This document shows, piece by piece, positions 16,067 through 58,974 of a DNA stretch of 64,000 nt. The translations under genes and the position numbers were made by a program. Source of the DNA: Rhodocytophaga aerolata (GTDB taxonomy: Bacteria > Bacteroidota > Bacteroidia > Cytophagales > 172606-1); assembly GCF_030503435.1 (NCBI RefSeq), contig NZ_JAUKPO010000014.1, forward strand, positions 1 through 64,000, read 5' to 3'. Position 1 is the stretch's first letter. Every line of letters starts with the position of its first letter. The notes below the pieces were generated by a model. That model saw only the letters and a program-made list of their open reading frames with translations, did no database searches and had not been told where the DNA came from.

Positions 16067-16117
16067 GTTTACCTTTTGCTTACCTTCTTTTTTTCTGCTT
16101 GTTCACCTTTTGCCTAC
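16067..16117 (+). promoter_or_regulatory. Two operator-like direct repeats upstream of lanC
   Basis: GTTTACCTTTTGCTTAC (from 16067) and GTTCACCTTTTGCCTAC (from 16101) are imperfect direct repeats 34 bp apart. The same motif occurs three times upstream of each of two precursor genes in this locus (from 18298 and 19600). The last copy lies at nearly the same distance from the -7 box in all three places. This is best explained as binding sites for one shared regulator, not encoded in the window. Confidence 0.7.
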
Positions 16118-16150
16118 TCTGGTTAATAGGATATACATGCCTTTGTCGCT

Positions 16151-16158
16151 TTTCTTTG
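16151..16158 (+). promoter_or_regulatory. Candidate -7 box of the lanC promoter
   Basis: TTTCTTTG followed by TATCATCA aligns with TATGTTTG-TATCATCA of the first precursor promoter (18413). It is close to the Bacteroidota -7 consensus TAnnTTTG. No clear TTG at -33 is seen, consistent with dependence on an activator at the upstream repeats. It supports the lanC start at 16231, downstream of this box. Confidence 0.55.
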
Positions 16159-16230
16159 TATCATCATCCATCACCAAATCATAGCATCATAACTAACACT
16201 CTAATATTTACCCATCACCACATCGTACAC

Positions 16231-17469
16231 ATGGAAACACTACAACTTGCCACCCCACAAACTCAATCTGATATACAAGCAGACGCCCAAACCATTTTAC
16301 ACCGCATTTACAAACATATAATGGCTCAGCCTGTGGGGCAGGATTTTTCTCTGCTTGGTGGAGAAATGGGCTTTGCACTTTTTGAACGCTACTACCAGCA
16401 TCATTTTAACTTGCCGGAAGAGAGCCGTACCTGGGAACGCATAGAAGCCAGCTTAGAAGCCATAGCTGAAGGAGATCAGCTACACACATTTGCTGGAGGA
16501 GTCGCCGGAATGGCCTGGAGTTTTTTACATCTCACCAATGCAGGACTGCTTTCAGGTTTGGAGTCTGATGCACAACGCATTGTAGAGGATCTGGACGAAC
16601 CTTTGTTTAACGCATCTATGAAGTGTTTGCAAGAAGCGGAATTCGACTATCTGCATGGAGGCTTAAGTGCAATGCTTTATTTCCTGGAACGTACGCCCAG
16701 TCCCAGAATCCATCAGTACATCACAGCCATGGTACTGCAACTGGAAAATATATCAATTCTTAGCCTCCATGGCGGTATTACCTGGCTTTTTAAAAAACAT
16801 GGCCTTTACAAACCAGGGGATACGCCTGAGTATAATCTTAGTCTGTCACATGGGGTAGCCAGTATAGTTGCTGTGCTTGCCTTAGCGTACGAAAAAGGGT
16901 ATGAACGGGATCGATGCCACAAACTTATTCGTCTGGCTTTGCGGTGGATGTGGAATGTACGCAACAAACAAGATACCTCTCTATTTCCATACATAGTAAC
17001 CGATGTGCTGCAAGATCAGCACAGCCGCCTGGCCTGGTGTTATGGCGATTTGGGTGTAGCCAGTGCTTTTTACCTGGCTGGTGAAAAGCTAGACTACAAA
17101 CCCTGGAAAGATACAGCACTGCATACCATATATAAATCCACGTTGCGCCGCGAGTTTGCCGATACACATGTACGCGACGCCGGAGTATGTCATGGATCAG
17201 CAGGGATTGCCTATATTTATCATAAATTTAGCAAAGTTTCCACCAACCCCATTATTAGCTCTGCAGCCCGGTGCTGGTTAACCAATACACTGCAAAGGAG
17301 CTTGCCAGAGACGGAAGAGGCTGTATATGTACAATTAACGCCCACCAAAGAAGGGTTTGTGCCTTATCAGAGTAACGGACTATTAGAAGGGGAGACAAGT
17401 ATTGGGATGGTTCTGCTTTCTATGCTGGGAACTCCTACCGGGTGGGACCGTTTTCTGCTGCTATCTTAA
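16231..17469 (+). CDS. lanC: Class I lanthipeptide cyclase LanC
   Basis: 412 residues from the ATG at 16231, the usual LanC length. LanC adds Cys thiols to dehydroalanine/dehydrobutyrine in the precursor core, making (methyl)lanthionine rings. The zinc ligands are visible: Cys270 in WCYGDLG and the Cys320-His321 pair in VCHGSAG. The double alpha-barrel glycine motifs also appear (FAGGVAGMAW, LHGGLSAML, SLSHGVAS). The frame extends to 16099, but that would cross the promoter repeats. The gene is transcribed alone, between a promoter with shared operators and a strong terminator. It is about 1 kb upstream of the precursor genes and 2.8 kb upstream of lanB, unlike the common lanBTC order. Confidence 0.93.
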   Translation: METLQLATPQTQSDIQADAQTILHRIYKHIMAQPVGQDFSLLGGEMGFALFERYYQHHFNLPEESRTWERIEASLEAIAEGDQLHTFAGGVAGMAWSFLHLTNAGLLSGLESDAQRIVEDLDEPLFNASMKCLQEAEFDYLHGGLSAMLYFLERTPSPRIHQYITAMVLQLENISILSLHGGITWLFKKHGLYKPGDTPEYNLSLSHGVASIVAVLALAYEKGYERDRCHKLIRLALRWMWNVRNKQDTSLFPYIVTDVLQDQHSRLAWCYGDLGVASAFYLAGEKLDYKPWKDTALHTIYKSTLRREFADTHVRDAGVCHGSAGIAYIYHKFSKVSTNPIISSAARCWLTNTLQRSLPETEEAVYVQLTPTKEGFVPYQSNGLLEGETSIGMVLLSMLGTPTGWDRFLLLS

Positions 17470-17569: not shown

Positions 17570-18290
17570 AAAGTCACCCGGAGAGCACTGACTACCTTGC
17601 TCGAAACAAACCCCCTGTTATTACACCTCTTGTACCATCTGTTAAGTTAGCCAGGTATTGGCTGAAAGCATGGTGGTAATTCCTTAGAATGAGATATCTT
17701 TTGGTAAGGGCAAATTATACTTTGATATACTTGAAAAAATGCTGTGCGTTTTTAAAAACATATAGCCTTTAGATTGAAATATATACTGCTGATGAATTTT
17801 ATATGCTTCTAGTCGGGTATAGATTAGCTATACTAACAGGTTCAATACGGTGACGGAGTAACGTAACAGATTACTAATAAATCAGGAATTATTTTAATGC
17901 CTGTTCTTACAGGCAAGAGACTATTTGAAAGCTAAATACCATTTCCTTTCTATCTGTATTCTTCGCAGATTCTGCTACTGTTCCTTCCATTTACTGCGTA
18001 GTGTGTCTGTACTGTAAAAAAGCAGGCATTGTTTTGAATATAATTTTTCTAAGTCAGGTAAAAGAATGTATCAATAGATATCCTACTGATACATTCTTTT
18101 ATTATCTCATCATCTACGCACCACCCAATTCAATAATACCTGGAATTTTCTCAGGTCTGTTTACCAGAGTTACCTCTTTTTATATCAGCATTTTCTAATT
18201 TTTATTATTTCTTCCAATGAGTGGACAAAAAACCATCAAGATGAAAAAAATATAAAAAGGGCTTTTATGATGAAAATGAGGTGTTTTTAT
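17570..18290. other. Intergenic region between lanC and the precursor genes, no gene seen
   Basis: About 720 bp with no convincing coding sequence; the one 65-codon frame here (18001-18198) lacks coding character. It holds a short hairpin, TGCCTGT (17898-17904) / ACAGGCA (17909-17915), and the larger inverted repeat at 18060-18101. Its last part begins the block duplicated upstream of the fifth precursor gene. Confidence 0.6.
18060..18101. repeat. 14-bp perfect inverted repeat in the lanthipeptide intergenic region
   Basis: AAAAGAATGTATCA (18060-18073) and TGATACATTCTTTT (18088-18101) are exact inverse complements around a 14-nt loop. The A and T ends could make it a weak bidirectional terminator; it could also be a protein-binding site. 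Confidence 0.6.
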
Positions 18291-18297
18291 CTCCTGT

Positions 18298-18380
18298 GTT
18301 CACCTTTTGATACCGTTACTAACAGTCATGTATACGCGCTGTATACCCTTTTTTTGCCATCCGTTCACTGTTTGTATACC
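18298..18380 (+). promoter_or_regulatory. Triple operator-like repeat upstream of precursor gene 1
   Basis: Three direct repeats start at 18298 (GTTCACCTTTTGATACC), 18330 (GTATACGCGCTGTATACCC, degenerate in its first half) and 18363 (GTTCACTGTTTGTATACCC). Spacings are 32 and 33 bp, about three helical turns, so all sites face one side of the DNA. The last repeat starts 26 bp before the TTGAC element. The arrangement is repeated almost exactly from 19600. Confidence 0.75.
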
Positions 18381-18388
18381 CCTAAAAA

Positions 18389-18420
18389 TTGACATGGGGC
18401 CAGGCCGTGTGCTATGTTTG
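18389..18420 (+). promoter_or_regulatory. Promoter of the precursor gene array
   Basis: TTGAC at 18389 and TATGTTTG at 18413 match the Bacteroidota sigma factor pattern (TTG at -33, TAnnTTTG at -7) with a 21-nt spacer between TTG and TA. The inferred transcript would have a leader of roughly 110 nt before the ATG at 18537, containing the first CAGGG-type element. Confidence 0.75.
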
Positions 18421-18450
18421 TATCATCAAAACGACAACAACACAACCACA

Positions 18451-18488
18451 CAGGGACAGCCGAAAACCTGAAAACAAAGTAGGCCAAA
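18451..18488 (+). repeat. Leader element copy 1 (CAGG...CCTG...GTAGGC)
   Basis: First of four copies of a 37-38 nt element in the precursor array: CAGGGACAGCCGAAAACCTG, then AAAACAAAGTAGGCC. CAGG pairs with CCTG, and the loop GCC can pair with GGC downstream, which would give an H-type pseudoknot. It lies in the 5' leader of precursor gene 1, about 50 nt before the ATG. Confidence 0.65.
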
Positions 18489-18536
18489 ATATAACTTATA
18501 TAACAAAACAATCAAACTCTCTAAACAAGTAAAACT

Positions 18537-18695
18537 ATGAAAAAGCAAGTAAAGAAAATCACCTTAAGAACAGACAAAATAGTAAACCTGTCTAATACTC
18601 AGGCAATGAATATACAAGGCGGAAGGGCGGGAATCTGTCCAACTTCCCGCCTAAATGCCAATGGGCTTATTAGTTGCTATGATGGTCCTAAGTAA
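18537..18695 (+). CDS. Class I lanthipeptide precursor 1 (two-Cys core)
   Basis: A 52-residue peptide. The leader MKKQVKKITLRTDKIVNLSN carries the L-x-K/T-x-x-I-x-x-L pattern of Bacteroidota class I lanthipeptide leaders and ends in Gly28-Gly29, a C39-protease double-glycine site. The predicted 23-residue core begins at Arg30 and contains Cys34 and Cys47, with dehydratable Thr36, Ser37 and Ser46. It is the only one of the five with two cysteines, so up to two thioether rings are possible. The start is fixed by alignment with the four sister peptides. It is the first gene after the shared-operator promoter. Confidence 0.85.
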   Translation: MKKQVKKITLRTDKIVNLSNTQAMNIQGGRAGICPTSRLNANGLISCYDGPK

Positions 18696-18703
18696 TCGTC
18701 CAT

Positions 18704-18740
18704 CAGGGGTAGCCGAAAACCTGAGATAGAGTAGGCAAAC
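18704..18740 (+). repeat. Leader element copy 2
   Basis: CAGGGGTAGCCGAAAACCTG followed by AGATAGAGTAGGCAAAC. TCAGG/CCTGA gives a 5-bp stem here, with the same GCC/GGC pairing potential. It begins 9 nt after the stop of precursor gene 1 and precedes precursor gene 2. Confidence 0.7.
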
Positions 18741-18789
18741 AACAAATCATCTAAAACACAATCACAAACTCTATAAACAACAAAAAACT

Positions 18790-18909
18790 ATGAAAAAGCA
18801 AATTAAAAAGGTTGCTCTGAAAACAGAAAAAATTGTTAGTCTATCTACTGCACAAGCTCAAAATGTGCAAGGCGGCAGGATGCACAAACCATTCGTATTA
18901 ACTATGTGA
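18790..18909 (+). CDS. Degenerate lanthipeptide precursor-like peptide 2 (no Cys in core)
   Basis: A 39-residue peptide with an intact family leader (MKKQIKKVALKTEKIVSLST) ending in Gly28-Gly29. The core, RMHKPFVLTM, is only ten residues with one Thr and no Cys. It cannot form a thioether ring. It could be a decayed copy, a linear dehydrated product or a regulatory peptide. It was identified by its leader, as it is too short for ordinary gene calling. The leader differs from its sisters (Ile5, Val8-Ala9, Glu13), so it has diverged longer. Confidence 0.7.
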   Translation: MKKQIKKVALKTEKIVSLSTAQAQNVQGGRMHKPFVLTM

Positions 18910-18965
18910 ATAATCACCACTCTCTATTTAAACAAAATAATTCCAACTCTCTAAACAAAACAATT

Positions 18966-19109
18966 ATGAAAAAGCAAGTAAAAAAAATCACATTAAAAAC
19001 TGACAAAATTGTCAACCTGTCTACCACGCAAGCTCAGAACGTTGTAGCTGGTGCCAGACCTTCTGGTAACACTACTGAGTGGGTAAACACAAGACCAACC
19101 TGCTTGTAA
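18966..19109 (+). CDS. Class I lanthipeptide precursor 3
   Basis: A 47-residue peptide. The leader is almost identical to peptides 1, 4 and 5 and ends Ala28-Gly29-Ala30, so cleavage would follow AG or GA and not GG. The core RPSGNTTEWVNTRPTCL has one Cys (Cys46) near the end and dehydratable Ser33, Thr36, Thr37, Thr42 and Thr45, allowing one ring. It pairs with peptide 4 in core sequence. The frame is open to a GTG at 18906; the ATG at 18966 is chosen because the leader begins there in all copies. The leader element is absent here, though the nearer AACTCTCTAAACAA segment is kept. Confidence 0.85.
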   Translation: MKKQVKKITLKTDKIVNLSTTQAQNVVAGARPSGNTTEWVNTRPTCL

Positions 19110-19133
19110 AAACCAATGACTGTAATCAGTCAT

Positions 19134-19171
19134 CAGGGGTAGCCCAAAACCTGACAACAGAGTAGGCAAAC
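19134..19171 (+). repeat. Leader element copy 3
   Basis: CAGGGGTAGCCCAAAACCTG followed by ACAACAGAGTAGGCAAAC. Nearly identical to copy 2, with one base change in the loop (GCCC for GCCG). It lies between precursor genes 3 and 4. Confidence 0.7.
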
Positions 19172-19225
19172 TTTTAAATCATTCAAAACAAAACAATCAC
19201 AAACCCCTTTAAAACAACAATAATT

Positions 19226-19375
19226 ATGAAAAAGCAAGTAAAAAGAATCACTTTAAAGACTGATAAAATTGTAAATCTGTCTAATACACAAGCTCAGCAA
19301 GTAGTAGCCGGTGCTAGACCTTCCGGTAGCGGTAATACTACTAAGTGGGAAAACGGAATTCCTACCTGCCTGTAA
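19226..19375 (+). CDS. Class I lanthipeptide precursor 4
   Basis: A 49-residue peptide with the family leader (MKKQVKRITLKTDKIVNLSN) and an Ala-Gly-Ala cleavage region at 28-30. The core RPSGSGNTTKWENGIPTCL is a variant of peptide 3: a two-residue SG insertion, and conserved NTT, Trp41 and a PTCL end with Cys48. Ser33, Ser35, Thr38, Thr39 and Thr47 could be dehydrated. Peptides 3 and 4 may act as a related pair or be recent duplicates. It lies beyond the reach of conventional length cut-offs and was found from the repeated leader. Confidence 0.85.
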   Translation: MKKQVKRITLKTDKIVNLSNTQAQQVVAGARPSGSGNTTKWENGIPTCL

Positions 19376-19383
19376 TCAATTAT

Positions 19384-19420
19384 CAGGGGAAGCCGAAAAC
19401 CTGCAACAGAGTAGGCAAAT
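19384..19420 (+). repeat. Leader element copy 4, orphan
   Basis: CAGGGGAAGCCGAAAACCTG followed by CAACAGAGTAGGCAAAT. It is not followed by a precursor gene: the next one starts 428 bp away and has its own promoter in between. This copy probably marks a lost precursor or the point where the second promoter block was inserted. Confidence 0.7.
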
Positions 19421-19599
19421 CTTAAATTATCTATTGCCACTGTACATACCTTCTAGGTAAGATGGATTCTTTCTCCAGTAGCAACGTTCAATAGTGTATG
19501 ACCAGAATCTTTGCTTGTTCTGGACTATATAATAACCGGACGGCTGATTACCTGTAAAAGTGCCTTTTTGGTGAAATTTAGGATGTTTTTTGGGCCCAT

Positions 19600-19681
19600 G
19601 TTCACCTTTTGCTACACACTTTTAGGCACAGTTCAATGTTTGTATACCCTTATTTTCCCGCTGTTCACCGTTTGTATACGC
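19600..19681 (+). promoter_or_regulatory. Triple operator-like repeat upstream of precursor gene 5
   Basis: Direct repeats start at 19600 (GTTCACCTTTTGCTACAC), 19631 (GTTCAATGTTTGTATACCC) and 19663 (GTTCACCGTTTGTATACGC), 31 and 32 bp apart. They match the array at 18298-18380 in order, spacing and distance to the promoter. Similarity continues some 45 bp further upstream and into the promoter, so the whole block is a duplication of about 175 bp. Confidence 0.78.
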
Positions 19682-19688
19682 CCAAAAA

Positions 19689-19720
19689 TTGACTTGGGGC
19701 CGGGTAGTGTAGTATGTTTG
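19689..19720 (+). promoter_or_regulatory. Promoter of precursor gene 5 and probably of lanB-lanT-hlyD
   Basis: TTGAC at 19689 and TATGTTTG at 19713, with the same spacing as at 18389/18413. No other promoter is evident before lanB at 20252, so the enzyme and transporter genes are probably read from here through the hairpin at 20140-20179. Confidence 0.75.
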
Positions 19721-19847
19721 TTTCATCAGAACGGCAACAAACAAAAGGAATTTGATAGTAGATTACTGGCAACAAACATTTAGGATAGTCCACTTACCTT
19801 CAAAAACAAACCATCTAAAACAAATACTCTTTAAACGAGCAATAACT

Positions 19848-19991
19848 ATGAAAAAACAAGTAAAAAAAATCACCTTGAAAACAGATAAAATAGTAAACTT
19901 AACAAAAAGCCAGAGCCAGCAAGTGGCAGCCGGACGCTCCATTATCACTGGCTTCCTTTTGTGCGAGATTCTGACAACAAAAACTATCTAA
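19848..19991 (+). CDS. Class I lanthipeptide precursor 5
   Basis: A 47-residue peptide. The leader (MKKQVKKITLKTDKIVNLTK) is that of the family, and the cleavage region is Ala28-Gly29. The core RSIITGFLLCEILTTKTI is hydrophobic with a single central Cys39 and possible dehydration sites at Ser31, Thr34, Thr43, Thr44 and Thr46. It is unrelated in core sequence to peptides 1-4. The frame is open upstream to 19752, but the ATG at 19848 matches its sisters. It has its own operator-promoter block and is the precursor closest to the processing genes. Confidence 0.85.
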   Translation: MKKQVKKITLKTDKIVNLTKSQSQQVAAGRSIITGFLLCEILTTKTI

Positions 19992-23441: not shown

Positions 23442-25679
23442 ATGACCAATTTTCTTAAAACCATTACTGGTGGGAAGATGAGCCCCTATGCGCTCGTAGA
23501 TACCTTTCCGCACATCAGCCAAGGTGCTTCCATGGACTGCGGCCCTACCAGCCTTGCGATGATCTTCCGCTACTACGGAGCAGAGAATACACAGTACCTG
23601 CTCACCAGGCTCAGCGAAGTAACTACGGAAGGTACCAGTTTATACGACTTGATGTCCGTAGCCGAGAGCTTTGGTTTTAAAGCAGAAGGCTACGAACTGG
23701 ATTATGAATACCTGCAAAAGATTCAATTGCCTTGCATTGCTCATTACGACGGACAGCATTTCGTAGTCGTGTACGAAGCCACCGACAGCTATGTACGCGT
23801 GGCTGATCCGGCCTTTGGCAAGGCCCGTTACACCCGCGAGCAGTTTACCAATAAGTGGAGCGGCGTAGTGCTGGAACTCAAACCTACCGACAAGTTCAAA
23901 GAAAATACAGAGCTGAAAGAAGCAGTAGCCAAACACAAAGAGGAGAAACAGTCTATTTTCAGGCAACTATACTTGCCCATTATCAAGGAAAATAAAAAGG
24001 TACTTCTCGAAATTGCCCTTTTCTCACTGTTGCTGGAACTAGTAGGTCTGGTATTACCGCTGTTCACACAGACCATGCTCGACAATGTGCTCATTAACCA
24101 GAACAAGAAGCTGCTGGTAGGTATTTTGGTAGGCTTGATGCTGGTATTTGTAGTGCAAGTGGTGCTCACCTACACCCGCAGCATGCTGATGGTGCATTAC
24201 CGCTTTCGGTTTGAGATGGACTTTATGAGTAAGTTCTTTGAGCGGTTCATTTCCCTGAAGCAGAAATATTACGATAACCGCAAGCGGGAAGAATTTATGT
24301 CCCGCTTTCAGGAAGGGGTAGGTATCCGGCAATTAACCAATCCGGTAATTATCCAGAACTTTCTGGATGTATTGTTCATGATGGTGTACTTTCCGGTGCT
24401 CATCTGGTTTAACAGTGCCTTGGGCTTTGTGGCGCTGGGCTGCTTTTTAGCTTACTGCCTTACTACAGTCTATTTCATTCCTATCGTTAAAAACCTGCGG
24501 TCCAAAGTCTATCACAAAAACCAGGCATCTCTGGGAGGCTTTCTGGATGCCCTGTTGGGTATCAAAACCGTAAAACTACTTTCCTTAGAAAAATATAAAT
24601 TGTCCCGCTGGAAGCATATTCATCGAGAGTCCATTAACTCGGTAATGGACGATGAGCAGAAGCAAATCCTGATTAATTCTGTACAACGGCTCATTTTTAT
24701 CTTTTCCCAGGTAGCCATCTACTGGCTGGGTGCCTACCAGGTATTTACCTCTCAGCTGAGCATTGGCCAGTACATGGCTTTTACCTCCATCTTTATGACA
24801 GTGATGAACTCTGTGAACAGTGTGAGTATGCTCTGGATGATGGTGACGCAGCTAAGTGTGAGTTTTGAAAAAGTAAATGAAATTTTCCTGGAAGAGAAGG
24901 AAGAGACAGATGTACAGGGGAAATCACACCGCTTTTCTGATGAAGTAATCCGCTTTGAGAATGTTTCTTTCAAATACAATAAAAAAGACGAAAAGTATAT
25001 CCTGAAAAATTTGAACTGCCAAATACGCAAAGGCGAACGCATTGGTATTGTAGGCCGTAACGGAGCCGGAAAATCTACCTTTGTTAAACTGCTTATGAAC
25101 CTGTATCCGGATTACGACGGCAATATTTGGTGCGATGGTACAGAATTGCGGCAGGTACATCCCAAGGTCTTGCGCAAGCATATACATATGTTTCCGCAGG
25201 AAACCTACATTTTCAATGACACTATCAAGGAAAATATCCGCTGCGCTAACCTGTCAGCCAGCACCGAACAAATTGTAGAGGCAGCCCAACTAGCCGACTT
25301 GCACGACTTTGTAAAAGCGAATCATCTGGGCTATAACCATATGGTGGGCAATTTTGGTAGTAATCTGTCTGGTGGGCAAGTACTGAAAATTGGCTTTGCC
25401 CGCTTGTTTGTTACCAGTCCTGAGCCAGATGTAATTATTCTGGATGAAGCCAGTAGTGCCCTGGATGTGGAAACTGAGAAAAAAATCCTGGAGAATATCT
25501 ATGAACGGTATGCTGGCAAAACCATCATTTCTATTGCCCACCGCTTACATACGCTTAAGAATGCCGACCGTATCCTGGTGTTTGACCAGGGAACCATTGC
25601 TGAGCAAGGCAAACACCAGAGCCTGTTAGCACAAAAGGGCATCTATTATGATTTCATGAAAACCTATGTAGACTATTAA
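23442..25679 (+). CDS. lanT: Peptidase C39-containing ABC transporter (LanT), leader-cleaving exporter
   Basis: 745 residues. Residues about 20-140 form a C39 cysteine protease: Cys33 in SMDCGPTSL, His106 in GQHFVVV and Asp122 in ADPAFG, with Gln27 for the oxyanion hole. This domain cuts double-glycine leaders, matching the GG/AG ends of the precursors. A six-helix membrane domain follows (about 165-450), then the ATPase: Walker A GRNGAGKST, signature LSGGQ, Walker B VIILDEASSALD and H-loop SIAHRL. It should cut and export the modified peptides. No separate leader protease gene is seen. It lies 13 bp after lanB and 4 bp before hlyD. Confidence 0.95.
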   Translation: MTNFLKTITGGKMSPYALVDTFPHISQGASMDCGPTSLAMIFRYYGAENTQYLLTRLSEVTTEGTSLYDLMSVAESFGFKAEGYELDYEYLQKIQLPCIAHYDGQHFVVVYEATDSYVRVADPAFGKARYTREQFTNKWSGVVLELKPTDKFKENTELKEAVAKHKEEKQSIFRQLYLPIIKENKKVLLEIALFSLLLELVGLVLPLFTQTMLDNVLINQNKKLLVGILVGLMLVFVVQVVLTYTRSMLMVHYRFRFEMDFMSKFFERFISLKQKYYDNRKREEFMSRFQEGVGIRQLTNPVIIQNFLDVLFMMVYFPVLIWFNSALGFVALGCFLAYCLTTVYFIPIVKNLRSKVYHKNQASLGGFLDALLGIKTVKLLSLEKYKLSRWKHIHRESINSVMDDEQKQILINSVQRLIFIFSQVAIYWLGAYQVFTSQLSIGQYMAFTSIFMTVMNSVNSVSMLWMMVTQLSVSFEKVNEIFLEEKEETDVQGKSHRFSDEVIRFENVSFKYNKKDEKYILKNLNCQIRKGERIGIVGRNGAGKSTFVKLLMNLYPDYDGNIWCDGTELRQVHPKVLRKHIHMFPQETYIFNDTIKENIRCANLSASTEQIVEAAQLADLHDFVKANHLGYNHMVGNFGSNLSGGQVLKIGFARLFVTSPEPDVIILDEASSALDVETEKKILENIYERYAGKTIISIAHRLHTLKNADRILVFDQGTIAEQGKHQSLLAQKGIYYDFMKTYVDY

Positions 25680-58106: not shown

Positions 58107-58841
58107 TTAAAAATTTGGTTGCAATAAATATTTAGAGTAGAAGTCATCTATGACTTTTACTGCATCGGTAGGCGTATCTACGATATTTATCAACTTTAGG
58201 TCTTCTTCACTAATATTCTTTTCCCGGCCCAGCATTACTTGTTCTATCCAATCCATTAAGCCCTGCCAGTAATCCCTGCCCACCAGAACAATAGGGAACC
58301 GGCCAATCTTTTGTGTCTGAATTAAGGTAATAGCTTCAAAAAGTTCATCTAATGTACCCATACCACCAGGCATGACAATAAAACCTTGGGCATACTTCAC
58401 AAACATTACTTTTCTAACGAAGAAATAATCGAAGGTGATAATTTTATCCGGATCTATATATACATTGTGAAACTGCTCAAAAGGCAAATGAATGTTCAAA
58501 CCTACTGACTTACCTCCCTGCTCAAAAGCGCCTTTATTGCCAGCTTCCATAATGCCTGGGCCACCGCCAGTAATAACTCCATAGCCATGCCGTACCAATT
58601 TGGCAGCTATTTCTTCCGCCATTTTGTAGTAAGGATTGTCGGGCTTGGTACGGGCAGAGCCAAATATGGATACACATGGACCTATTTTGCCTAGCTTTTC
58701 AAAGCCGGTTACAAACTCAGCCATTACTTTAAATATAGCCCAGGAGTCTGCTATTTTAATTTCATTCCAATCTCTGTCTTTGAATGCCTGTCTGATGCGG
58801 TGTTCTTCCGGGCTGATATTCTCCTGTTTAACTTTTTGCAT
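58107..58841 (-). CDS. LOG family protein (nucleotide 5'-monophosphate phosphoribohydrolase type)
   Basis: 244 residues with the LOG motifs GGGPGIMEAGNKGA (92-105) and MPGGMGTLDE. The family, often misnamed lysine decarboxylase, splits the ribose-base bond of nucleotide monophosphates. Which base is used here is unknown. It precedes the lytic transglycosylase gene by 3 bp. Confidence 0.92.
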   Translation of the reverse strand: MQKVKQENISPEEHRIRQAFKDRDWNEIKIADSWAIFKVMAEFVTGFEKLGKIGPCVSIFGSARTKPDNPYYKMAEEIAAKLVRHGYGVITGGGPGIMEAGNKGAFEQGGKSVGLNIHLPFEQFHNVYIDPDKIITFDYFFVRKVMFVKYAQGFIVMPGGMGTLDELFEAITLIQTQKIGRFPIVLVGRDYWQGLMDWIEQVMLGREKNISEEDLKLINIVDTPTDAVKVIDDFYSKYLLQPNF

Positions 58842-58974
58842 AGTCTATTAACTAAATCTTATTCTATTATTTATTCAATACAAATTTATTTCTTTCCAAA
58901 GGGCTGCAAAGATACCTCTTTTTTAACTAAAAAGCTTAGCTACTAACGAGTTACTCCTGCTACTTGTTTTATAC

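What the first reader, a model, noticed from the sequence alone, without database searches (positions are those of the whole stretch)
18537..19991. Five-member lanthipeptide precursor family with shared leader and divergent cores
Leaders are almost identical for about 27 residues, while cores range from two-Cys (peptide 1), through one-Cys threonine-rich (3, 4) and hydrophobic one-Cys (5), to Cys-free (2). One enzyme set would thus make several different products. Peptides 3 and 4 share an NTT-x-W...PTCL pattern. The small number of cysteines relative to Ser/Thr predicts products with few rings and many free dehydrated residues.
Basis: partly seen in the sequence, partly recalled or inferred. 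Interest (0 to 1): 0.8.

Follow-up and report, generated by a model that had tools for sequence, protein, structure and literature searches.

The report
Lanthipeptide gene array with RNA tags
A bacterium, probably of the Bacteroidota, carries five small genes for ring-forming peptides that share one start region but differ in their product part; such arrays are known, but here and in related bacteria most of these genes are preceded by the same small folded RNA of unknown function, which hints at a shared switch.

Summary
The five precursor genes are real and of a known kind: class I lanthipeptides with an L1b leader, beside intact LanC, LanB, C39-ABC transporter and HlyD genes. All five pass the NCBIfam NF038158 cut-off; the leaders are under purifying selection. 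"Almost identical" leaders is too strong (16 to 24 of 27 positions). The same gene set is in 12 of 12 close LanB loci (Fibrisoma, Runella, Spirosoma, Larkinella). All 36 L1b precursors detected there have two or more core cysteines; the window has 2,0,1,1,1. Cys-free peptide 2 lies at a probable deletion junction.

Each spacer except the shortened one holds a copy of Rfam DUF805b, a 35-nt RNA with no function given. In the close loci 25 of 36 precursors carry one 19-40 nt before the start codon: 25 of 26 outside Runella, 0 of 10 in Runella. Hairpin and pseudoknot covary. Elsewhere in the phylum, 67 of 110 elements examined precede signal-peptide-like or GG-leader-like genes (rough rules, no background measured). 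Only 8 of 67 more distant LanB loci have a hit. I infer a translation-level cis-regulator; its function and the peptide products are untested.

The parts
16099..17469 (+). LanC cyclase (ORF from TTG; the true start probably lies further in)
   Evidence: Pfam LANC_like 109 bits over residues 82-452; CYG and CHG motifs align with MadC-like entry 8byk
18255..18446 (+). promoter segment of the array; a near copy lies before P5
   Evidence: local alignment with about 19556-19745
18363..18379 (+). operator-like repeat GTTCANNGTTTGTATAC
   Evidence: 3 exact copies in the genome, all before P1 or P5
18389..18420 (+). Bacteroidota-type -33/-7 promoter of P1
   Evidence: pattern scan of the sequence; the consensus is recalled
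18450..18485 (+). DUF805b RNA before P1
   Evidence: Rfam RF02914, 33.6 bits, below the gathering score 35.6; own model R1 47.1 bits, but R1 was trained on this copy
18537..18695 (+). P1, lanthipeptide precursor, 2 Cys in core
   Evidence: NF038158
18703..18737 (+). DUF805b RNA before P2
   Evidence: RF02914, 43.1 bits
18790..18909 (+). P2, precursor with Cys-free 10-residue core, probably cut short
   Evidence: NF038158; junction analysis
18966..19109 (+). P3, precursor, 1 Cys in core; no DUF805b of its own
   Evidence: NF038158
19133..19168 (+). DUF805b RNA before P4
   Evidence: RF02914, 37.0 bits
19226..19375 (+). P4, precursor, 1 Cys in core
   Evidence: NF038158
19383..19417 (+). DUF805b RNA after P4, 430 nt before P5; probably parted from P5 by the promoter segment
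   Evidence: RF02914, 45.9 bits; distance
19556..19745 (+). second copy of the promoter segment
19631..19647 (+). operator-like repeat
19663..19679 (+). operator-like repeat
19689..19720 (+). Bacteroidota-type promoter of P5
   Evidence: consensus recalled
19848..19991 (+). P5, precursor, 1 Cys in hydrophobic core
   Evidence: NF038158
20252..23428 (+). LanB dehydratase, full length with both domains
   Evidence: Pfam Lant_dehydr_N 446.9 bits and Lant_dehydr_C 216.4 bits; NisB and 9g04 among 4 PDB matches
23442..25679 (+). C39-peptidase ABC transporter (leader cleavage and export)
   Evidence: Pfam Peptidase_C39, ABC_membrane, ABC_tran
25684..27045 (+). HlyD-type adaptor
   Evidence: Pfam HlyD_3

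Best explanation
A class I lanthipeptide cluster of the Bacteroidota GG-leader type. Shown by sequence: five L1b precursors lie with one LanB, one LanC and one C39-ABC/HlyD exporter. Inferred: LanB dehydrates core Ser/Thr, LanC closes the few possible rings, and the C39 domain cuts after GG or AG during export. P1-P4 are probably read from one promoter with an operator-like repeat next to it; P5 has a duplicate of that promoter. The precursor gene evolves as a module of RNA element, leader and core: a DUF805b RNA (hairpin plus pseudoknot) lies before P1, P2 and P4, was probably lost before P3 by a deletion that also cut off the core of P2, and was probably parted from P5 by the promoter duplication. 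The RNA most likely acts on the mRNA near the start codon and sets translation of each precursor separately; this last step is inference.
For: Families of precursors and enzymes. Same genes in 12 of 12 close loci. Purifying selection on the leaders. Four DUF805b copies in the array and one other over the cut-off in 9.07 Mb (one search scored 150 of 5380 first-look candidates). In the close loci 25 of 36 precursors carry the RNA 19-40 nt before ATG: 25 of 26 outside Runella (the 26th has what looks by eye like a decayed copy) and 0 of 10 in Runella. Of 37 model hits with E up to 0.01 in the 79 LanB loci, 34 lie directly before a peptide with a GG-type leader end (GG, GA or AG). Covariation: 97.3% of cells paired in 37 copies from lanthipeptide loci, 99.6% in 79 other copies, pseudoknot alone 99.2% with 38 double-change cells, in an alignment fitted to a model without the pseudoknot; for cells paired, double-change cells and covariation score 0 of 500 shuffles reach the observed value. 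The first ORF starts 0-29 nt after the element in 102 of 109 surveyed cases. Junctions and promoter duplication; promoters; operator repeat.
Against: No product, transcript or RNA data. Window copies lie 46-52 nt (model end to ATG) from the start codon, longer than the 19-40 nt of kin and the usual 0-29 nt elsewhere. One of four copies is below Rfam's gathering score and most kin copies are too: only 5 in the 12 close loci pass it. R1 was trained on 34 copies, four of them the window's. Runella arrays lack the RNA before 10 of 10 L1b precursors; only 8 of 67 more distant LanB loci have a hit; none was listed on the contig of this genome's second LanB. So the RNA is not needed for lanthipeptide production as such. 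P3 and P5 lack one nearby. The survey rule takes the first ORF of 30 aa or more within 200 nt, which itself favours short distances. Weaker covariation measures: further pair types were reached by 468 of 500 shuffles and 118, and pairs with a double change by 18 of 500 and 8; most of the pseudoknot signal comes from one of its three pairs.
Confidence: 0.72

Rival explanations
1. The DUF805b copies are mRNA processing or stability elements that cut or protect each precursor message in a polycistronic array, not translational switches.
For: Three copies lie between or after genes of one array; folded spacers of this sort can be processing sites (general knowledge).
Against: In the survey the element stands before genes of many families with the first ORF 0-29 nt downstream in 102 of 109 cases, which suits initiation control better than processing.
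Confidence: 0.2
2. The repeats are DNA-level cassette boundaries: recombination between copies shuffles leader-core cassettes, and the fold is incidental.
For: Copies flank gene units; the P2/P3 junction looks like a deletion and the P5 promoter like a duplication.
Against: Compensatory changes in hairpin and pseudoknot and a fixed direction and mostly short distance to the start codon point to RNA. No copy was found at the P2/P3 junction. No integrase among the 9 window genes scanned with Pfam; the other window genes were not scanned.
Confidence: 0.07
3. The array is decaying: the low-Cys cores are losing function and only P1, if any, gives a ring-bearing product.
For: 4 of 5 cores have fewer than two Cys against 0 of 36 detected in kin (Fisher p 5e-5, not corrected for shared descent); P2 at a probable deletion junction; RNA missing from P3 and parted from P5.
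Against: The five ORFs are open, pN is far below pS in the leaders including P2 and P5; P3 and P4 cores share the W and PTCL positions; LanB, LanC and transporter are full length. One Cys suffices for one ring.
Confidence: 0.3
4. Cys-free P2 is a real substrate that is only dehydrated, a dehydropeptide rather than a lanthipeptide.
For: Cys-free small peptides with the RNA also occur in other LanB loci: L104 directly before LanB, L140, and L137 without a clear GG.
Against: The P2 core has one Thr and no Ser and lies at a probable deletion junction.
Confidence: 0.08

Closest known systems
Bacteroidetes class I LanA with GG leader and C39 transporter (Walker et al. 2020, PMC7268733; section 6 and passages seen)
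   Same: Class I enzymes, leader ending in GG or alike, a C39 peptidase in the cluster; clusters with several precursors are reported there (one class I cluster of Tumebacillus with 10 distinct ones)
   Different: The paper's leader motif is LxLxKx5L; the L1b leaders here resemble it but I ran no test of that motif. Cores here are poorer in Cys than those of close kin. The parts I saw name no RNA element
Pinensins (named in passages of PMC7268733; otherwise recalled)
   Same: Class I lanthipeptides of Bacteroidota; per that 2020 paper the only ones then isolated from the phylum
   Different: Core or precursor similarity was not tested here
Prochlorosins, class II one-enzyme many-cores (recalled; named in a passage of PMC7268733)
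   Same: Conserved leader, divergent cores, shared modifying enzyme
   Different: Class II enzyme and Nif11-type leader; unrelated machinery
Rfam RF02914 DUF805b RNA
   Same: Three of four window copies pass its gathering score; typed Cis-reg in Rfam
   Different: Found here before lanthipeptide precursors. The paper I recall as its source (10.1093/nar/gkx699) was not held, so I do not know whether it mentions such genes

Membership tests
Class I lanthipeptide cluster | LanB with glutamylation and elimination domains | tested here: met
   Pfam N and C domains full length; PDB sequence matches to NisB and 9g04; single catalytic residues not checked one by one
Class I lanthipeptide cluster | LanC cyclase with Cys/Cys-His zinc site | tested here: met
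   LANC_like; CYG and CHG motifs aligned with 8byk; zinc triad C-gap-CH stated in a passage of PMC10352776
Class I lanthipeptide cluster | precursor leader of a known class I family | tested here: met
   5 of 5 above the NF038158 cut-off
Class I lanthipeptide cluster | core with both Cys and Ser/Thr | tested here: inconclusive
   met by 4 of 5 precursors; P2 has no Cys
Class I lanthipeptide cluster | dehydrated and cyclised product | not testable with these tools
   needs mass spectrometry
DUF805b RNA (RF02914) | score at or above the gathering cut-off | tested here: met
   3 of 4 window copies; the fourth 33.6 against 35.6 bits
DUF805b RNA (RF02914) | conserved hairpin (with a pseudoknot as I read it) | tested here: met
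   the Rfam structure line shows only the hairpin
DUF805b RNA (RF02914) | cis-regulatory activity | not testable with these tools
   no expression data

The most novel reading that the evidence does not exclude
DUF805b is the RNA tag of a Bacteroidota regulon for exported and antagonistic products: a small pseudoknot just before the start codon that one cellular signal or RNA-binding protein reads to switch on translation of lanthipeptides, other GG-leader bacteriocin-like peptides and surface or type IX-secreted proteins together.
Probability: 0.35. Interest if true: 0.75.

Novelty: new variant of a known kind. Interest (0 to 1): 0.5.

Why it matters
The array itself adds one more set of lanthipeptide cores, from a phylum of which a 2020 survey said that only the pinensins had been isolated (passage of PMC7268733). 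The RNA link is the useful part: an RNA family without a known function gets a repeated, directional, close association with genes for exported peptides, so its function can be tested on a small reporter. If the RNA gates translation (speculation), it could help explain silent clusters in culture and would give a sequence tag for finding unannotated peptide genes in Bacteroidota.

Tried and rejected
Rfam matches mir-2985 (18050-18109) and snoR29 (17734-17800) are far below their gathering scores and were set aside. A universal link of DUF805b to lanthipeptides was rejected: 8 of 67 distant LanB loci have a hit, and 0 of 10 Runella L1b precursors. One search read five minus-strand loci in the wrong direction and two others (L032, L035) from the wrong position; it was replaced. 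The four L128 Hymenobacter precursors (E<0.01) were left out of the kin counts because L128 is not one of the 12 close loci; all four have two core Cys and no RNA hit. The kin count depends on a leader model made from the window's five leaders, so kin precursors with other leaders (such as the Cys-free one in L104) are not in it, and its leader-core cuts follow a simple pattern rule.

In one search I gave 37 copies: 4 of the window and 33 of the 37 non-window hits with E up to 0.01; left out were L093 9484, L101 8267, L122 15439 and L167. In some searches I fetched 40 stretches covering part of the list, and that list was itself cut by the tool. One search took 115 elements, 110 after removal of duplicates; its signal-peptide and GG classes are my own rough rules (two of its SP class, L204 and L206, look like GG-leader peptides) and no background rate was measured. 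One search got 108 of 109 downstream proteins (one ORF stands behind two tandem elements). In one search I left out L192, L197 and L204 to avoid duplicates, which also dropped one L204 copy (79 of 85 hits remain). In one search the ten genomes were picked because they are rich in the RNA; 30 of its 90 matches came as loci.

Literature: no paper in the held library contains DUF805b, DUF805 with RNA motif and Bacteroidetes, lanthipeptide with Bacteroidota and riboswitch, or bacteriocin with cis-regulatory RNA and Bacteroidetes; one Streptomyces paper has lanthipeptide and structured RNA (listing only); listings only. PMC7268733: passages and section 6. PMC10352776: passages. The library lacks most subscription journals.

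Full report
Observation. The window holds five small + strand ORFs at the stated place. All five leaders pass NCBIfam NF038158, class I lanthipeptide leader L1b. Pairwise leader identity is 16 to 24 of 27, with 12 of 27 positions invariant, so "almost identical" fits P3/P4 and not P2/P5. Over the ten leader pairs pS is 0.47-0.95 (0.60 or more in nine) while pN stays at 0.06-0.24. The leaders are therefore old duplicates kept by selection. In the genome five matches pass the cut-off, all of them these. The source is unnamed; that it is of the Bacteroidota is inferred from the closest LanB relatives and the promoter type.

Surroundings. LanC lies upstream (16099-17469); LanB, a C39-peptidase ABC transporter and a HlyD protein lie downstream, all with clear Pfam matches. 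LanB is full length and matches NisB and the structure 9g04 by sequence; LanC aligns with 8byk through its CYG and CHG motifs. A genome-contig scan with a LanB alignment found 290 relatives, of which the best 80 (79 loci) were kept. Twelve are close (56-63% identity): Fibrisoma limi, two Runella, two Spirosoma, seven Larkinella. All 12 hold LanC, ABC and HlyD as well.

Cores. With a leader model made from the window's five leaders, the 12 close loci give 36 L1b precursors with 27 distinct cores, every one with two to six Cys. The window's cores have 2,0,1,1,1. The contrast is significant as a count (4 of 5 against 0 of 36), but the genes share descent, so the p value is only indicative. P2's core is 10 residues with one Thr. 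The end of P3's 5' region (about 18931-18968) aligns with that of P1 (about 18502-18539), and the P2-P3 spacer (56 nt, against 94 for P1-P2 and 116 for P3-P4) lacks the RNA element, as expected from a deletion. I read the Cys-free core as a likely by-product of that deletion. Cys-free small peptides with the RNA do occur in other LanB loci (L104, which is one of the close ones, L137, L140), so the other reading is not excluded.

The RNA. Rfam finds DUF805b (RF02914) at 18703-18737, 19133-19168 and 19383-19417 above its gathering score and at 18450-18485 just below. The genome search lists one more copy over the cut-off (150 of 5380 first-look candidates scored), before a gene with a signal-peptide-like start and an HEIGH motif, probably the M57 peptidase of the Pfam tally. 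A model R1 built from 34 copies, four of them the window's, was run on the window and the 79 LanB loci. Outside the window it gave 37 hits with E up to 0.01; 34 lie directly before a peptide with a GG-type leader end. The other three: a peptide without clear GG (L137), a signal-peptide-like protein (L122) and one with no small gene next to it (L167). In the close loci 25 of 36 precursors have a copy 19-40 nt before ATG: 25 of 26 outside Runella, the exception having what looks by eye like a decayed copy, and 0 of 10 in Runella, although one extra Cys-free peptide in R. defluvii has one. No kin copy was in the training set. Rfam's own cut-off is passed by only 5 copies in these loci. Of the 67 more distant loci, 8 have a hit.

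Structure. The hairpin and a three-pair pseudoknot covary. In the 34 copies of A2, with a fourth hairpin pair, 96.3% of cells pair. In 37 copies from lanthipeptide loci 97.3% pair, with 39 double changes. In 79 other copies, aligned to a model without the pseudoknot, 99.6% pair overall and the pseudoknot alone has 99.2% with 38 double changes. For cells paired, double-change cells and covariation score no shuffle of 500 reaches the observed value. Other measures are weaker: further pair types were reached by 468, 118, 16 and 0 of 500; pairs with a double change by 47, 8, 3 and 18 of 500. Most of the pseudoknot signal comes from one pair (columns 15/45). This supports an RNA rather than a DNA repeat.

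What it precedes elsewhere. In a phylum sample 93 of 395 genomes have it at E up to 1e-6, a lower bound because of the tool's stricter filters. I examined 110 distinct elements: 46 precede proteins with a signal-peptide-like start, 21 small GG-leader-like peptides, 9 other small proteins, 33 others, 1 at a contig end (own rough rules, no background rate measured). The first ORF starts 0-29 nt after the model end in 102 of 109, with the caveat that the rule favours near ORFs. Among 108 proteins scanned, NCBIfam matches 10 to bacteriocin-like leader_Chryseo, 3 to CCPGW putative bacteriocins, 2 to L1a lanthipeptides and 4 to the type IX sorting domain; Pfam gives 7 DUF6520 and one DUF805. Conversely, of 30 leader_Chryseo loci (of 90 matches, in genomes picked for being rich in the RNA) 7 have a copy just upstream. 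So the link with exported peptides recurs in unrelated families, yet is neither exclusive nor universal.

Transcription. Two Bacteroidota-type promoters precede P1 and P5 (consensus recalled). The P5 promoter region is a near copy of the P1 region that ends just before the P1 RNA element, which would explain the RNA copy stranded after P4. The repeat GTTCANNGTTTGTATAC occurs three times without mismatch in the genome, all here, and twice more with one mismatch; the reversed control gave one match with up to one mismatch. This suggests a dedicated regulator, which I did not look for.

Judgement. As a lanthipeptide array this is a new member of a known kind; Walker et al. describe Bacteroidetes class I GG-leader precursors and multi-precursor clusters (PMC7268733, section 6 read). 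With one RNA element per precursor it is a new variant, as far as my searches of a partial library show. The proposed role in translation is inference.

Noticed in passing
G000:C131:50273-53365 and 58835-58909 (L006): A second LanB (35% identical) and, about 5.5 kb away on the other strand, a GG-leader ORF below the L1b cut-off; no DUF805b match was listed on this contig.
   Followed up: partly
window 18363-18379, 19631-19647, 19663-19679: Operator-like repeat GTTCANNGTTTGTATAC, three exact copies in the whole genome, two of them ending 9 bases before the TTG box of the P1 and P5 promoters.
   Followed up: partly
L104 9644-9687 and the ORF that follows: Runella defluvii: a Cys-free GG-leader peptide with its own DUF805b directly before LanB, while the ten L1b precursors of the two Runella loci have none.
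   Followed up: no
window 18446-19225: Distance from the RNA model's end to the start codon is 46-52 nt here against 19-40 nt in kin and usually 0-29 nt elsewhere; unexplained.
   Followed up: no
   Followed up: no
L196, L176, L209, L233, L236: Small secreted Cys-containing peptides downstream of DUF805b look like one family; Pfam assigns DUF6520 to 7 of 108 downstream proteins, probably these among them.
   Followed up: no
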